Below, in pieces: positions 40,236 through 46,653 of a stretch of DNA of 64,000 nt. Under the pieces are notes generated by a model that made no database searches, had not been told where the DNA came from, and worked only from the letters and a program-made list of their open reading frames with translations. Made by a program: the position numbers and the translations under genes. The DNA is taken from NCBI GenBank assembly GCA_947475875.1, contig CANJME010000003.1, positions 124,001 through 188,000 on the forward strand, given 5' to 3'. Position 1 is the first letter of the stretch, and the number at the start of each line of letters is the position of its first letter. This DNA comes from Caulobacteraceae bacterium (lineage in GTDB: Bacteria > Pseudomonadota > Alphaproteobacteria > Caulobacterales > Caulobacteraceae).

Positions 40236-40994
40236 ATGGCCGAGGCCCTTAAATCTTCCATCGATCCGGACGAGGTCGAGCGTTTTTCGCGCATCGCCGC
40301 CGAATGGTGGGATCCGAAGGGCAAGTTCGCGCCGCTGCACAAATTCAATCCGGTGCGACTTGGCTTCATCCGCGACCGGGCGCTCCGCCATTTCAGGCGC
40401 GATCCGAACGCTCGCCAACCGTTCCAGGGCCTGCGTCTGCTCGACATCGGCTGCGGCGGCGGCCTGCTGTCCGAGCCGATGACCCGCCTCGGGTTTTCGG
40501 TGATGGGCGTCGACGCCTCTGACCGCAATATCGGGACCGCCTCCGTCCACGCCGAGGCCGGCGGCCTGGCCATCGACTACCGCGCCTCCACCGCCGAGGC
40601 GCTGGAGGCCGCCGGCGAGGGGCCGTTCGACGTGATCCTCAACATGGAGGTGATCGAACACGTCGCCGACCCGGCCGAGTTCCTGCGCACCTGCGCCCGG
40701 CTGCTGGCCCCCGGCGGACTGATGATCGTCGCCACCCTCAACCGCACATTGAAAGCCTTTGCGCTTGCCAAGGTCGGCGCCGAATACGTCCTGCGCTGGC
40801 TGCCGGCCGGCACCCATGACTGGAACAAGTTCATCAAACCGGACGAACTGCGAAGCTTTGTCACAGATCAAAACCTCGCGATTGAAGGTCCGATAGGGAT
40901 ATCTTTCGATCCCCTGAGCGGACGCTGGTCTGTCGCGTCCGAGACGGACGTCAACTACATGATGGTGATCACGAGACCCCTGACGCCATGCTGA
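40236..40994 (+). CDS. ubiG: Ubiquinone biosynthesis O-methyltransferase
   Basis: 252 residues. SAM motif [19 protein letters not shown], the following DAS acidic loop ([10 protein letters not shown]), and motif II ([15 protein letters not shown]) fit UbiG. It methylates both the 2-polyprenyl-6-hydroxyphenol and the 3-demethylubiquinol intermediates. The N-terminal [20 protein letters not shown] is the UbiG signature. Overlaps the HTH protein gene by seven bases. Confidence 0.94.
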
Positions 40995-41470
40995 GAGAAG
41001 AATTTCAGACCCCGGAAGCCGGCATGGGCGAGCGCGCCGCCGCCCGCCTGACCACCCGGTTCGTCCTCGACCTCTGCGGCGTCATGGCCGAGGTGGCGGG
41101 CGGCGATCTGTTGCGCGGCCTGATCCTCACTGCCATCGTCGACGCCAATGTCGGTCACCTGGCGGCGCAGGAAAGCCGGGACCACGGTAGCATGGAAGGC
41201 ATTCCGCCCGATGACCTGCGCCGTCCTATCAGCATCAGCGCGCTCGCCCGCTTGTTGAAGATTCCCTACGAGACCACCCGACGCCACGTCGCCCGCCTGC
41301 TCGATGAGGGCATCTGCATCAGAATCGAGGATCGCGGCGTGATCGTTCCGGCGGCCATGCTCGCCCAGATAAAGCCCGTGACGGCGCACCACTACGAAAG
41401 TCTCAGAGGCCTGCTGTTGGCCCTGAACGAAGCCGGTTTCGACGTAGAGGCGATGTCCCGCCCCAGCTAG
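40988..41470 (+). CDS. HTH DNA-binding protein, paralogue A
   Basis: 160 residues. Residues 80-109 form a helix-turn-helix ([20 protein letters not shown] then VARLLDEG) followed by a wing-like GVIVP. The C-terminus has [16 protein letters not shown]. It is homologous along its length to the protein at 42042-42539, so the pair is a tandem duplication. Family unknown to me; a transcription regulator is inferred. It overlaps ubiG by seven bases, so it is probably expressed with it. Confidence 0.7.
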
Positions 41471-42041: not shown

Positions 42042-42539
42042 GTGGCAGCCGTGCTCAAGAGTGAGTTGAGCGGCGGACAGGCCGGCGCTGGCGAGCGCCT
42101 GGCGACGCGCATCCTCGTGGACTCGCTTTTGCGCCAGCTGGTCATCGTCGGCGGCGCGCAGAAGAGCGATGTGATGCTGACCGTGGTCTATCTCGCCATC
42201 CTCAGCGCCAACCTGCAGCATATCGGAACCGATACCGACACGGCGCGCCGGTATGGCGGCGTTGACCAGACCCCGCCGGATGCAGAGCTTCGCCCGATCA
42301 GCGCCCATTCGCTGGCCCTGTCACTGGGCATCCCTTACGAGACCGCGCGCCGCTACATCGGCAAGCTGATCGCCGCGGGCCGCGTCGCCCGCGTCAAGGG
42401 CGGCGTCATCGTTCCCGATCGCCTGGCGGCCTCGGAAGCCGGCAAGGAACAGGTCCGCCAGTTCTACGCGGCGCTGCGCCGCCTGCTGATCAACCTGCGC
42501 CGTGCGGGGTTTGATCTTGAGGCGATGAGCCAGGGCTAA
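42042..42539 (+). CDS. HTH DNA-binding protein, paralogue B
   Basis: 165 residues from GTG 42042; because AGGAGG lies only three bases upstream, a second GTG at 42051 (LKSELSGG) may be the true start. HTH at about 89-113 (SLALSLGIPYETARRYIGKL) and wing GGVIVP, ending RAGFDLEAMSQG. It matches paralogue A at the HTH (GIPYETARRYIGKL against [14 protein letters not shown]), at the wing and at the C-terminal EAMS, showing duplication. Role unknown. Ends four bases into the convergent nitrilase gene. Confidence 0.7.
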   Translation: MAAVLKSELSGGQAGAGERLATRILVDSLLRQLVIVGGAQKSDVMLTVVYLAILSANLQHIGTDTDTARRYGGVDQTPPDAELRPISAHSLALSLGIPYETARRYIGKLIAAGRVARVKGGVIVPDRLAASEAGKEQVRQFYAALRRLLINLRRAGFDLEAMSQG

Positions 42540-43658: not shown

Positions 43659-44384
43659 TCATATAGGCAGACTCGCCGCCTCTTTCACCCGGGCGATCAC
43701 GGCCACATCCACGCCCACCGCGCCGGCGCTGCGCAGGGCCCTGGCGCAGGCCTCGGCCGTGGCGCCGGTGGTCATGACATCATCGATCAGCAGCACCCGC
43801 TTCCCCGCCACCTGACCACGGCGTCCCGGCGGCACGGCGAAGTCGGCCGCCACATTGCGCCGGCGACCCGAACCGCTCCGTCCCGCCTGGCTGCCGGTGT
43901 CGCGCTTTCGCACCAGGGCGTCGGGGAGATAGGCGCGGCCGGCCTTCTTCGCCACCAGCCGGGCGATCTCGGCGGCCTGGTTGTACTTGCGGCGAAACAG
44001 GCGTGAGCCGTGCAAGGGAACGGGCGCCACCGCGTCCGCCTCGCCGAGCACATCGCTCGCCGCCCGGCTGATCCAGGCGGCGAACAGGGGCGAAAGGTCG
44101 GTGCGGTCGGCGTGCTTGAATTGCAAAACGAGATCCCGCGAACTCTCGTCATAAAGACAGGCCGCCCGCGCCCGGTCGAAGGCCCGCGGCCTGGTCTGGC
44201 ACGGCGCGCAACGCAGGCCGGTTTCAAACTCGTAAGGGCTCCCGCAGCCGTCGCAGAACGGGGCGTCGATGAAAGCGACCTTCTCCCAGGCGCCGGGGCT
44301 GAGGCCCGTGGTCATCGCCACGCCGCCGCCGTCGAGCAGGGCGGGCGGAAACAACAGATCAAGCGCGGCGGAAAACCGTCTCAA
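43659..44384 (-). CDS. comF: ComF family phosphoribosyltransferase-like protein
   Basis: 241 residues. An N-terminal zinc-finger-like part (FCDGCGSPYE, CAPCQTRP) and a C-terminal type I phosphoribosyltransferase region with VLLIDDVMTTGATAEACA, the PRPP loop. ComF is required for DNA uptake in transformable bacteria; many genomes carry it without known competence. Followed by grxC; preceded, six bases upstream, by the redoxin-cytochrome fusion gene on the same strand. Confidence 0.9.
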   Translation of the reverse strand: MRRFSAALDLLFPPALLDGGGVAMTTGLSPGAWEKVAFIDAPFCDGCGSPYEFETGLRCAPCQTRPRAFDRARAACLYDESSRDLVLQFKHADRTDLSPLFAAWISRAASDVLGEADAVAPVPLHGSRLFRRKYNQAAEIARLVAKKAGRAYLPDALVRKRDTGSQAGRSGSGRRRNVAADFAVPPGRRGQVAGKRVLLIDDVMTTGATAEACARALRSAGAVGVDVAVIARVKEAASLPI

Positions 44385-44390
44385 TCAGGA

Positions 44391-46463
44391 CTAGCCGCGG
44401 GGGCTTGGCGTCGCGCTGGCCGTTGGCCGGGCGGGGGGCATGGCCGCCTGGACCTCGTCATCCGGATCAAGGTTGATCGCCCGGCCGCGCGTAGCAGCCG
44501 CCAGCTCGGTGGTGTCGAGTCCCCCGTCGCCGTTACGGTCCAGCATTGAGAACAGCGGCTTCATCGGCGCGAACTGCCGGCCGTTGAGCTCGGCCACTTC
44601 CACCTTGCCGTTGAGGTTCTTGTCCAGGACCCCGATGTTGCGGCTGGTGTTCAGAGCCAGGTCATGCTGCGGCGTGCGGTGGGAAGAGGTCTCGTCCTTC
44701 CACTGGTAGTCGAAGGCCACGTAGAACATCTCATCCCACGACTGCGAACCCCACGGCACCGTGCGGCTGGAGTCGGGATTGGCCGCGTTGCGCTTGGAGT
44801 TGTCGTATGACAGGTGCGCGACCAGCTTGGTGCCGGCCGGAATGTCGATCGGCTCCTTGAAGTTGTACCAGGCCTGCCAGTTGAAGTCCCAGTGCGGGAC
44901 CGCCAGGATCGTCTCCCTGCGCCCGTCGGGATACTGCAGCTCCGCGCTCGCAGAGCGCCCACGGTAGTGCGCGTGCGGGAAGATCGAGAACAGCTTCGCG
45001 TCGGCCGGGAAGGTGATGTAGGCCACGTCCTGCCAGTTGTTGGTATTGGGCGTCAGGGCGATGTTCGGGTCGGTGATCACCGACGAGTGCTGGATGTGGG
45101 TCGGCGTCACGCCCTTCGGGAAGAAATAGAGCCCGACCTTGGTGTTATCGACCACTTCCTTGCCGAACGAGGTGTAGTGCATCTGGAAGCCCAGGGCGCC
45201 GCCCTTGGTCAGCAGCGTGCCGGAATCCGGCGGCAGCATCGAGGAATCGCCGCCCACCGCATAGGTGCCAACCGTGTTGCCGCCGCTGAAACCGCCGCGG
45301 GTCACATCACCCCCGGAGGGCAGGGTCGGACGATAACTGGTCAGGATGTGGTGGACGCCCTGACGCTGGTCGATCTTGAAGGTCGAGGCGCGCAGCCAGC
45401 GGTCCTCGAAATCGGCCGGCATGGCCGCCCACGGGGTCTTGTAATCGACGGTGCCGTTGGCCGGGATCGTAAAGGCCGGGATGTTCAAAACCACGTCCGG
45501 CGTGCCCAACGGCCATTCCTTGGCGGCGAAGGTCTGCGCGCCCAGCGGGTCGGCGCCGGTTCCGCGCGGCGAGCCCGCTTCCACCCAGTGCACCAGCGTC
45601 TTGATCTGATCGGCGCTCAGGCTGACGTCATTGGCGAAGTGGCCGATGCGCGGATCGGCGTGGAAAGGCGGCATGCGCTTGGTGCGCAGCACCTCGCGGA
45701 TCATCAGTGCATGACCTCTTACCTGCTCATAGTTGACCAGGGTCATCGGGCCGATGCCGCCGGCCTGGTGGCAGCTGACGCACTTTTCCTGAATGATCGG
45801 GGCGACGTCCTTGACGTAGGATATCTTGGCGAAATCGCTCTTCGCCGCCAGCAAGGCGATCGGCGAGCCGGGGGCGGCGACGTGGGCCACCTTCACCGGG
45901 CTTCCGGCCAGCACCGCGTCCAGCGCGTCCTTGGCGTAGGTCTTGGTGGCGGCTGATTTCGTGGCCCCCCGCGACACGCGGTCATCGACCGGGCCGCGAT
46001 AGGCGATGGTCCAGGTCTTGGCGTCGACGACGATCACTTCGCCGGTGCGTTGCAGTTCCAGCTGCTCGGCGACCAGCTGGTTGAGGTCCTGCAGAACCGG
46101 CATGTCGTAGTGATAGTCGGCCGCTTCCTTGGCGATGGACTCACGGGTGTCGCCGGCGGTGGCGTTGAGCATGAACACCTCGACGCCCTTGCCGGCGTAG
46201 GCGGTCTTCAGCGCGTTGTAGGCCTGCGCATTGGCGCGCACCAGCTTATCGCCGTTCGCCTGGCTGATCAGCACAATGGCCTTGGCGTCGGCGCCCATCG
46301 GGTAAAGGTGGTGAGCGAGCAGATTCTGGTCGGGCAGTTCGAAGTCATCGACCTTCTGGCTGTCGGCGGCGACCGCCCGGTGGCCCGTTCCGGCCCCGGC
46401 GAAACCCCAGGCGCCAACAAGGGCTGCAACGGCCGCGGTGGCCAGCAAGCGAGAAGCGGTCAT
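44391..46463 (-). CDS. Redoxin-cytochrome c-copper monooxygenase-like fusion
   Basis: 690 residues from ATG 46463; the frame stays open upstream to 47153 but that part overlaps the divergent methyltransferase and has no signal peptide. Order: signal peptide (1-33), a thioredoxin-fold region to about 195 without a CXXC, a cytochrome c site CVSCH at 228-232 with a later Met in RTKRMPPFHADP, then a beta-rich domain at 310-600 with HH 371-372 (GVHHILTSY), H429 (QMHY), H497/H499 (PHAHYRGR), M579 (WDEMF), the full copper ligand set of peptidylglycine monooxygenase. Two EF-hands at 614-625 and 642-653. Substrate unknown; periplasmic. Confidence 0.82.
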   Translation of the reverse strand: MTASRLLATAAVAALVGAWGFAGAGTGHRAVAADSQKVDDFELPDQNLLAHHLYPMGADAKAIVLISQANGDKLVRANAQAYNALKTAYAGKGVEVFMLNATAGDTRESIAKEAADYHYDMPVLQDLNQLVAEQLELQRTGEVIVVDAKTWTIAYRGPVDDRVSRGATKSAATKTYAKDALDAVLAGSPVKVAHVAAPGSPIALLAAKSDFAKISYVKDVAPIIQEKCVSCHQAGGIGPMTLVNYEQVRGHALMIREVLRTKRMPPFHADPRIGHFANDVSLSADQIKTLVHWVEAGSPRGTGADPLGAQTFAAKEWPLGTPDVVLNIPAFTIPANGTVDYKTPWAAMPADFEDRWLRASTFKIDQRQGVHHILTSYRPTLPSGGDVTRGGFSGGNTVGTYAVGGDSSMLPPDSGTLLTKGGALGFQMHYTSFGKEVVDNTKVGLYFFPKGVTPTHIQHSSVITDPNIALTPNTNNWQDVAYITFPADAKLFSIFPHAHYRGRSASAELQYPDGRRETILAVPHWDFNWQAWYNFKEPIDIPAGTKLVAHLSYDNSKRNAANPDSSRTVPWGSQSWDEMFYVAFDYQWKDETSSHRTPQHDLALNTSRNIGVLDKNLNGKVEVAELNGRQFAPMKPLFSMLDRNGDGGLDTTELAAATRGRAINLDPDDEVQAAMPPARPTASATPSPRG

Positions 46464-46653
46464 GTGACTCTCCAGAGACGATGCCAGAACGATGAATCGC
46501 GTGCGTGGGACCGCACGGTGAGAACAGCCTACCCAATACTCGTAAAATAACCCCAAAACTGTCAATTTGGCGATAGAATAATATCGATTGTCGACAAAGG
46601 CGCAGGCGACGAAAGAACGCGCCTCGTCCCGGCAATTTGCTAAACCCCAACCG

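What the first reader, a model, noticed from the sequence alone, without database searches (positions are those of the whole stretch)
44391..46463. One protein combining thioredoxin-fold, cytochrome c, PHM-type copper ligands and EF-hands
The sequence shows HH 371-372, H429, H497/H499 and M579 in the same order as the two copper sites of peptidylglycine hydroxylating monooxygenase (H107/H108/H172 and H242/H244/M314), with M579 in WDEMF as M314 lies in DEM. It also has CVSCH, a CXXC-less thioredoxin fold and two calcium loops. Known PHM takes electrons from ascorbate; a fused cytochrome c suggests a built-in electron supply. The gene sits between comF and the NDUFAF5-like methyltransferase, which often face each other directly. 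Substrate and function are unknown.
Basis: partly seen in the sequence, partly recalled or inferred. Interest (0 to 1): 0.62.

Follow-up and report, generated by a model that had tools for sequence, protein, structure and literature searches.

The report
Bacterial PHM-type copper enzyme with built-in haem
A bacterial protein that joins the two-copper oxygen-using module of animal hormone- and adrenaline-making enzymes to a haem electron-carrier module, one of nine copies in this genome, which suggests that bacteria power this chemistry with an attached wire instead of vitamin C.

Summary
The 690-aa protein (window 44391-46463, minus strand) is redoxin - c-type cytochrome - PHM/DBH dicopper module - EF-hand pair. 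The AlphaFold model (pLDDT 89.6) matches rat PHM at Z about 21 over about 270 residues and DBH at Z 21.6. A profile alignment places all six ligands on PHM's six. In 97 aligned sequences (itself included), the only His, Met or Cys residues kept in at least 98% are the haem motif, the probable haem Met and those six ligands. Nine copies lie in this 2.85 Mb Caulobacteraceae genome. The redoxin cysteine changed state at least 11 times and the EF-hands are optional. Three divergent members are cytochrome-PHM only. In strain LSUCC0112 one redoxin-cytochrome gene lies among three PHM-only genes. Best reading: a periplasmic dicopper monooxygenase fed with electrons by its own cytochrome c, not an amidating enzyme. 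Electron flow, activity and substrate are unproven. A new variant of a known kind.

The parts
44391..46463 (-). whole gene, 690 aa: redoxin - cytochrome c - PHM-type dicopper module - EF-hand pair
   Evidence: translation; Pfam; model
46362..46463 (-). signal peptide, residues 1-34 (judged by eye, cleavage near AVA-AD; no signal-peptide program was run)
   Evidence: sequence; pLDDT about 50 for residues 1-30
45864..46352 (-). redoxin/thioredoxin-fold domain, residues 38-200; Cys of the family motif NGCP is D72 here
   Evidence: Pfam AhpC-TSA; 3u5r Z 22.7 over 172 residues; Cys state
45549..45848 (-). c-type cytochrome domain, residues 206-305
   Evidence: CXXCH and RMPP invariant in 37 of 37 rows; the 9 VIA-align rows with Z of 2 or more are c-type haem proteins, best PccH Z 7.4
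45768..45782 (-). haem-attachment motif CVSCH, residues 228-232
45672..45674 (-). M264, probable axial haem ligand (in RMPP)
   Evidence: 97 of 97; axial role inferred
44658..45530 (-). PHM/DBH-type dicopper domain, residues 312-602
45348..45353 (-). H371-H372, CuH ligands (PHM H107, H108)
45177..45179 (-). H429, CuH ligand (PHM H172)
44967..44975 (-). H497-A-H499, CuM ligands (PHM H242, H244)
44727..44729 (-). M579, CuM ligand (PHM M314)
44589..44624 (-). EF-hand loop 1, residues 614-625
   Evidence: helices 598-613 and 632-641 in the model
44505..44540 (-). EF-hand loop 2, residues 642-653
   Evidence: helices 632-641 and 651-662 in the model
44377..46610 (.). segment present here and absent between comF and the methyltransferase in relatives
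   Evidence: blastn against L174 (G001); 29 of 29 other loci

Best explanation
It is a secreted (periplasmic) dicopper monooxygenase of the PHM/DBH superfamily that carries its own electron donor. CuM (H497, H499, M579) would bind and activate O2 and hydroxylate an aliphatic or benzylic C-H of a small organic substrate; CuH (H371, H372, H429) would supply the second electron. Instead of ascorbate, the covalently attached c-type cytochrome domain (CVSCH, M264) would reduce the coppers, itself reduced by the respiratory chain or by a neighbouring periplasmic dehydrogenase. The redoxin domain is probably structural or a docking module, because its cysteine is often lost; the EF-hand pair is an optional calcium-binding tail. 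Shown here: domain make-up, fold of the model, ligand correspondence, conservation, modularity, gene copy number. Inferred: metal and haem content, direction of electron flow, hydroxylation, location. The substrate is unknown; nine paralogues suggest a set of related substrates.
For: Fold: model pLDDT 89.6, pTM 0.88; PHM entries fill Foldseek's first six ranks (best E 1.9e-14), DBH is at rank 7; VIA-align 1opm Z 20.9, rmsd 3.4 over 269 residues, 4zel_A (DBH) Z 21.6 over 290. Ligands: profile alignment pairs HH/H/HxH/M one to one with PHM. Of 21 His, 14 Met and 2 Cys in the protein, only H232, H371, H372, H429, H497, H499, M264, M579, C228 and C231 are kept in at least 98% of 97 sequences, whose median pairwise identity is 42%. 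Cytochrome coupling: 3 divergent proteins are cytochrome-PHM without redoxin (L142; L160 and L167); in LSUCC0112 a redoxin-cytochrome gene (308 aa) lies among three PHM-only genes on the same strand, with signal-like N-termini on reading. Redoxin Cys present in 46 of 97, at least 11 changes on the tree. Operon context: of 105 immediate same-strand neighbours, 6 match the PQQ dehydrogenase model and 6 a redoxin model (one of the latter may be the broken-off redoxin part of L119, which was in the set). Neither is among the 25 families listed for 104 distant genes, where families with one member are not all shown. A CXXCH occurs in 7 of 105 neighbours against 2 of 105 distant genes.
Against: No biochemistry exists. 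The haem-to-copper distance could not be measured (model coordinates not given). Three PHM-only genes in LSUCC0112 and one divergent sequence, L137, with P at the H499 position show that the parts can separate or vary. In the DBH match by sequence the alignment stops before the CuM Met. The cytochrome fold match is weak on its own: best Foldseek E 1.0, best VIA Z 7.4. P0001's own neighbours (comF, methyltransferase) carry no functional hint. Neighbours of the family are mixed and include housekeeping genes such as gyrB, a RecG-like helicase and parB; the loci counted are partly close relatives of each other.
Confidence: 0.62

Rival explanations
1. The PHM module is a genuine dicopper monooxygenase, but electrons come from a soluble small-molecule reductant, and the cytochrome only senses redox state or takes electrons away.
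For: PHM takes its reducing equivalents from ascorbate (PMC6123673, passages); three PHM-only genes exist in LSUCC0112.
Against: Haem motif and M264 invariant in 97 of 97; the cytochrome is kept in three proteins without redoxin; bacteria are not known to make ascorbate as animals do (recalled); the LSUCC0112 PHM-only genes sit beside a cytochrome gene.
Confidence: 0.17
2. The protein is a copper and haem redox or copper-handling protein with no hydroxylase activity (sensor, store or electron relay) that keeps the ligands for metal binding.
For: The PHM residues that hold the peptide carboxylate (recalled: R240, N316, Y318) are not kept; no substrate is known; nine copies.
Against: Both copper sites are kept in the 97 sequences (H499 in 96), including the CuM Met after an invariant Glu, more than a mere store would be expected to need (inference); PQQ-type dehydrogenases recur as neighbours.
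Confidence: 0.13
3. A thiol peroxidase or thiol-disulfide enzyme in which the redoxin is the active part.
For: The redoxin domain gives the best single-sequence Pfam match, and a stand-alone redoxin gene follows in 6 loci (L040, L048, L058, L059, L062, L063).
Against: This protein has no Cys in the redoxin; Cys is missing at that position in 51 of 97 sequences.
Confidence: 0.03

Closest known systems
Peptidylglycine alpha-hydroxylating monooxygenase (PHM; rat, 1phm/1opm/1sdw)
   Same: Fold over about 270 residues, all six copper ligands in order
   Different: No Arg at the R240 position (0 of 97) and no Asn at N316 (0 of 97); no disulfides possible (2 Cys, both haem); fused to cytochrome c and redoxin; bacterial
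Dopamine beta-hydroxylase (4zel)
   Same: Same fold (Z 21.6) and best sequence match of the family's copper-domain profile (E 7e-6)
   Different: DBH has an N-terminal DOMON domain (recalled), not cytochrome c plus redoxin; substrate unknown here
Bacterial redoxin SMc02350 (3u5r) and 2ywi
   Same: N-terminal domain fold, 24-28% identity, Z 22-23
   Different: The Cys of the family's NGCP motif is Asp here; fused to other domains
PccH and other monohaem c-type cytochromes
   Same: The nine VIA rows with Z of 2 or more for the cytochrome domain are c-type haem proteins, best PccH Z 7.4 (that the cd1 and NirN entries hold a haem c domain is recalled)
   Different: Weak fold match; here an internal domain of a copper enzyme

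Membership tests
PHM/DBH (copper type II, ascorbate-dependent) superfamily | two-domain PHM fold | tested here: met
   (on a predicted model)
PHM/DBH (copper type II, ascorbate-dependent) superfamily | three His for CuH and two His plus Met for CuM | tested here: met
   (by alignment; distances not measured)
PHM/DBH (copper type II, ascorbate-dependent) superfamily | Pfam Cu2_monoox_C at curated cut-off | tested here: inconclusive
   P0001 22.9 against 23 bits in hmmscan; in the genome search 7 of the genome's 9 copies matched, all 7 over the cut-off, P0001 with 26.2 bits; 32 of 73 sequences at E 0.001 or better
PHM/DBH (copper type II, ascorbate-dependent) superfamily | ascorbate-driven hydroxylation | not testable with these tools
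   needs protein
PHM proper (peptide amidation) | peptide-carboxylate anchor R240/N316/Y318 (roles recalled; positions taken by offset from H242 and M314) | tested here: not met
   equivalents F495, Y581, A583; Arg 0 of 97, Asn 0 of 97, Tyr 15 of 97
PHM proper (peptide amidation) | five disulfides of the PHM core (recalled) | tested here: not met
   only two Cys in the protein, both in CVSCH
Class I c-type cytochrome | CXXCH plus distal Met | tested here: met
   (Met as ligand inferred)
Class I c-type cytochrome | cytochrome c fold | tested here: inconclusive
   best Foldseek E 1.0; VIA best Z 7.4
Peroxiredoxin/redoxin | redoxin fold | tested here: met
Peroxiredoxin/redoxin | catalytic Cys | tested here: not met
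   D72 in this protein; Cys in 46 of 97
EF-hand pair | two 12-residue DxNxD/NG....E loops between helices | tested here: met
   Pfam hits under gathering cut-off

The most novel reading that the evidence does not exclude
A periplasmic hydroxylation cycle without ascorbate: the cytochrome-fused dicopper monooxygenase hydroxylates a substrate, and a co-encoded PQQ quinohaemoprotein dehydrogenase (with its own CXXCH) oxidises the alcohol and returns electrons through c-type cytochromes to the monooxygenase. The nine copies would be a set of substrate-specialised enzymes for breaking down organic matter in fresh or marine water.
Probability: 0.18. Interest if true: 0.78.

Novelty: new variant of a known kind. 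Interest (0 to 1): 0.62.

Why it matters
PHM and DBH are known mainly from eukaryotes and PHM relies on ascorbate; how electrons reach the coppers and pass between them is a long-standing question (recalled). A large bacterial family with a covalently attached cytochrome offers a version in which electrons could be injected and followed optically. [quoted passage not shown] this family shows a broad bacterial branch. Nine searches of the open PMC library on this subject (listings seen) showed no title or abstract start that describes the fusion; most subscription papers are not held there, and the listings were capped.

Tried and rejected
Peptide amidation (PHM proper): rejected because the anchor residues as recalled are not kept. 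Thiol enzyme: rejected for this member, no Cys. Type III effector XopAW and lanmodulin matches from NCBIfam: these cover only the EF-hand region and lie far under cut-off. Genomic context of the window gene itself: uninformative; the 2-kb segment was inserted between two divergent genes, no listed repeat brackets its ends, no transposase was among the nine neighbour ORFs scanned, and no promoter or terminator match was found. First neighbour clustering contained an artefact: its cluster 2 was ORFs antisense to the target gene; gene calls were redone with a codon model. PQQ link inside this genome is modest: of 23 loci that I took from the 36 G000 matches, 4 lie within 6 kb of a copy against 0.86 expected (P 0.01), 4 within 8 kb (P 0.02), 3 within 5 kb (P 0.04), 1 within 3 kb (P 0.42); the distances were tried after seeing the positions. 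PqqD (PF05402) has no match in this genome and PqqC none in 3 genomes, but the PqqC search rang in no control either, so PQQ would have to be imported or the hits are not PQQ enzymes. The split or short genes in Phenylobacterium J426 (L163, L164) and Hyphomonas ih12 (L162) look truncated or frameshifted (not checked further) and were not used as evidence. The only hit of the cytochrome profile in the PDB by sequence is hydrazine synthase alpha, E 6e-5, with no stretch significant on its own: not used. Prevalence: 12 of 100 genomes of the relatives search, the own genome included and one (G074) only a weak N-terminal match; 3 of 398 genomes of the phylum, namely the own genome, one of its family and G193.

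The A5 and A6 'alignments' are lists of unrelated neighbour genes put together only so that one Pfam call could scan them; the loci behind them are partly close relatives, so the counts are not independent.

Full report
OBSERVATION. The gene lies on the minus strand at 44391-46463 and encodes 690 aa. Pfam alone gives marginal support: AhpC-TSA 4e-6, Cu2_monoox_C 22.9 bits against a cut-off of 23, EF-hand pair and cytochrome under cut-off. NCBIfam gave no match for the whole protein; its two hits are the EF-hand region, far under cut-off.

FOLD. A model on 73 aligned sequences has mean pLDDT 89.6 and pTM 0.88. Foldseek against the PDB puts PHM first (3mll, E 1.9e-14), DBH at rank 7, and bacterial redoxins from rank 30. 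VIA-align gives PHM entries Z 17.5-21.7 (1opm Z 20.9, rmsd 3.4, 269 aligned, model 322-620 on chain 62-345), DBH Z 21.6 and redoxin 3u5r Z 22.7 over 172 residues. The cytochrome domain predicted alone (pLDDT 86.7) has a best Foldseek E of only 1.0, but the nine VIA rows with Z of 2 or more are c-type haem proteins, best PccH Z 7.4.

COPPER AND HAEM RESIDUES. A profile of the copper domain alone (37 rows) finds DBH (E 7e-6) and PHM (E 0.001) by sequence. Its printed PHM alignment pairs H371/H372 with H107/H108, H429 with H172, H497/H499 with H242/H244 and M579 with M314; the DBH alignment stops before the Met (PHM numbering recalled and as in the finding). In 97 sequences, P0001 included, with median identity 42%, the only His, Met and Cys residues kept in at least 98% are the three of CXXCH, M264 and these six. 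The single exception is P for H499 in L137. The positions of PHM's peptide anchors (roles recalled) hold F, Y and A here; Arg occurs in 0 of 97 at the first and Asn in 0 of 97 at the second, Tyr in 15 of 97 at the third. So peptide amidation is unlikely.

FAMILY AND SPREAD. The window's genome (2.85 Mb) holds nine copies by two searches, four of them on one contig within 33 kb. It is patchy: 12 of 100 genomes with the own one and one weak match counted in, and 3 of 398 across the phylum with the own one counted in. Hyphomonas ih12 gave 9 matches (7 genes by my count) and the marine isolate LSUCC0112 gave 12.

MODULARITY. The redoxin cysteine (NGCP) is present in 46 of 97; the tree needs at least 11 changes, and this protein has Asp. 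At least one intact EF-hand loop is present in 79 of 97, with one change (FastTree, no bootstrap). In the 97, haem motif, M264 and copper ligands vary only in L137. Three divergent proteins are cytochrome-PHM without redoxin: L142 (414 aa), L160 and L167 (425 and 499 aa); by reading, each keeps CXXCH, MPP, the His ligands and the Met. In LSUCC0112 (L159) one redoxin-cytochrome gene of 308 aa lies among three PHM-only genes of 318, 319 and 350 aa on the same strand, with one doubtful 69-aa call on the other strand between two of them. Over 115 sources (window included, loci overlapping in part), gene calls gave 113 full-length architectures, 3 cytochrome-PHM (one is the 3' part of a broken gene, L119), 7 PHM-only (3 in L159; 3 that look truncated or frameshifted; 1 at a locus end), 2 redoxin-cytochrome (L159, and L164 which looks frameshifted) and 11 redoxin alone.

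NEIGHBOURS. Of 105 immediate same-strand neighbours, the commonest Pfam families include PQQ propeller dehydrogenases (6), ABC ATPases (6), redoxins (6; one may be the broken part of L119), hydroxyacid dehydrogenases (5), cytochrome CBB3 (5; probably the same proteins as the PQQ enzymes, which have a CXXCH), DUF885 (4) and ParB (4, from near-identical loci). In 104 distant genes of the same loci no family has more than 2 members, and these are not among the 25 listed of 139. The PQQ enzymes beside the gene carry a CXXCH of their own (L041, L050, L059, L076, L081, L111). In L059 the order is PQQ enzyme, this gene, redoxin; in L041 the PQQ enzyme lies between two copies. This fits a hydroxylase whose alcohol product is oxidised next door, but within the window's genome the PQQ association is modest, and PqqD was not found.

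SITE IN THE WINDOW. In 29 of 29 other genomes for which a locus was held, comF and the methyltransferase are back to back. The 90%-identical copy of G001 lies elsewhere; blastn shows that the DNA similarity to it covers essentially the gene only (44432-46451). So the gene probably jumped, or was copied, into this site after the split from G001; no listed repeat brackets the segment.

MECHANISM. From the anatomy: Sec-exported protein (signal judged by eye), haem c attached in the periplasm, copper sites loaded there, O2 activated at CuM, second electron from CuH, and cytochrome c as the electron entry. The last step is the inference that matters, supported by invariance and gene/domain pairing and open to direct test. 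Substrate: unknown; probably not C-terminal glycine peptides.

NOVELTY. The parts are known; the combination as a large bacterial family with built-in cytochrome was not seen in the listings of nine library searches on the subject, nor in passages of PMC8812541, PMC6919629 and PMC6123673. A tenth search was for the strain LSUCC0112 (listing only). Hence a new variant of a known kind.

Noticed in passing
G000 (window's genome), 23 loci taken from the rows: Many PQQ-type beta-propeller proteins in a 2.85 Mb genome (36 matches to TIGR03075, 3 over its cut-off), yet no PqqD match: perhaps PQQ is imported.
   Followed up: partly
window 44377-46610: Single-gene insertion between comF and a methyltransferase gene that are back to back in 29 of 29 other genomes seen; no listed repeat at the ends.
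   Followed up: partly
L123:7976-10036: A member on a contig titled Klebsiella pneumoniae MAG; shares neighbour families with L121, L126 and L128 of other gammaproteobacteria, so the MAG is probably mislabelled or chimeric.
   Followed up: no
L159:7156-11689: LSUCC0112: three PHM-only genes around one redoxin-cytochrome gene, with an old-yellow-enzyme-like gene (name from reading the sequence) next to them.
   Followed up: partly
L056, L061, L067, L068, L085, L094: A 2-hydroxyacid-dehydrogenase-like gene lies 50-64 bp from the gene in L056, L061, L067, L085 and L094, and a DUF885 gene 115-167 bp from it in L056, L061, L067 and L068.
   Followed up: no
window 40988-41467 and 42042-42536: Two similar small genes (160 and 165 aa) about 570 bp apart, put in one blastp cluster.
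   Followed up: no
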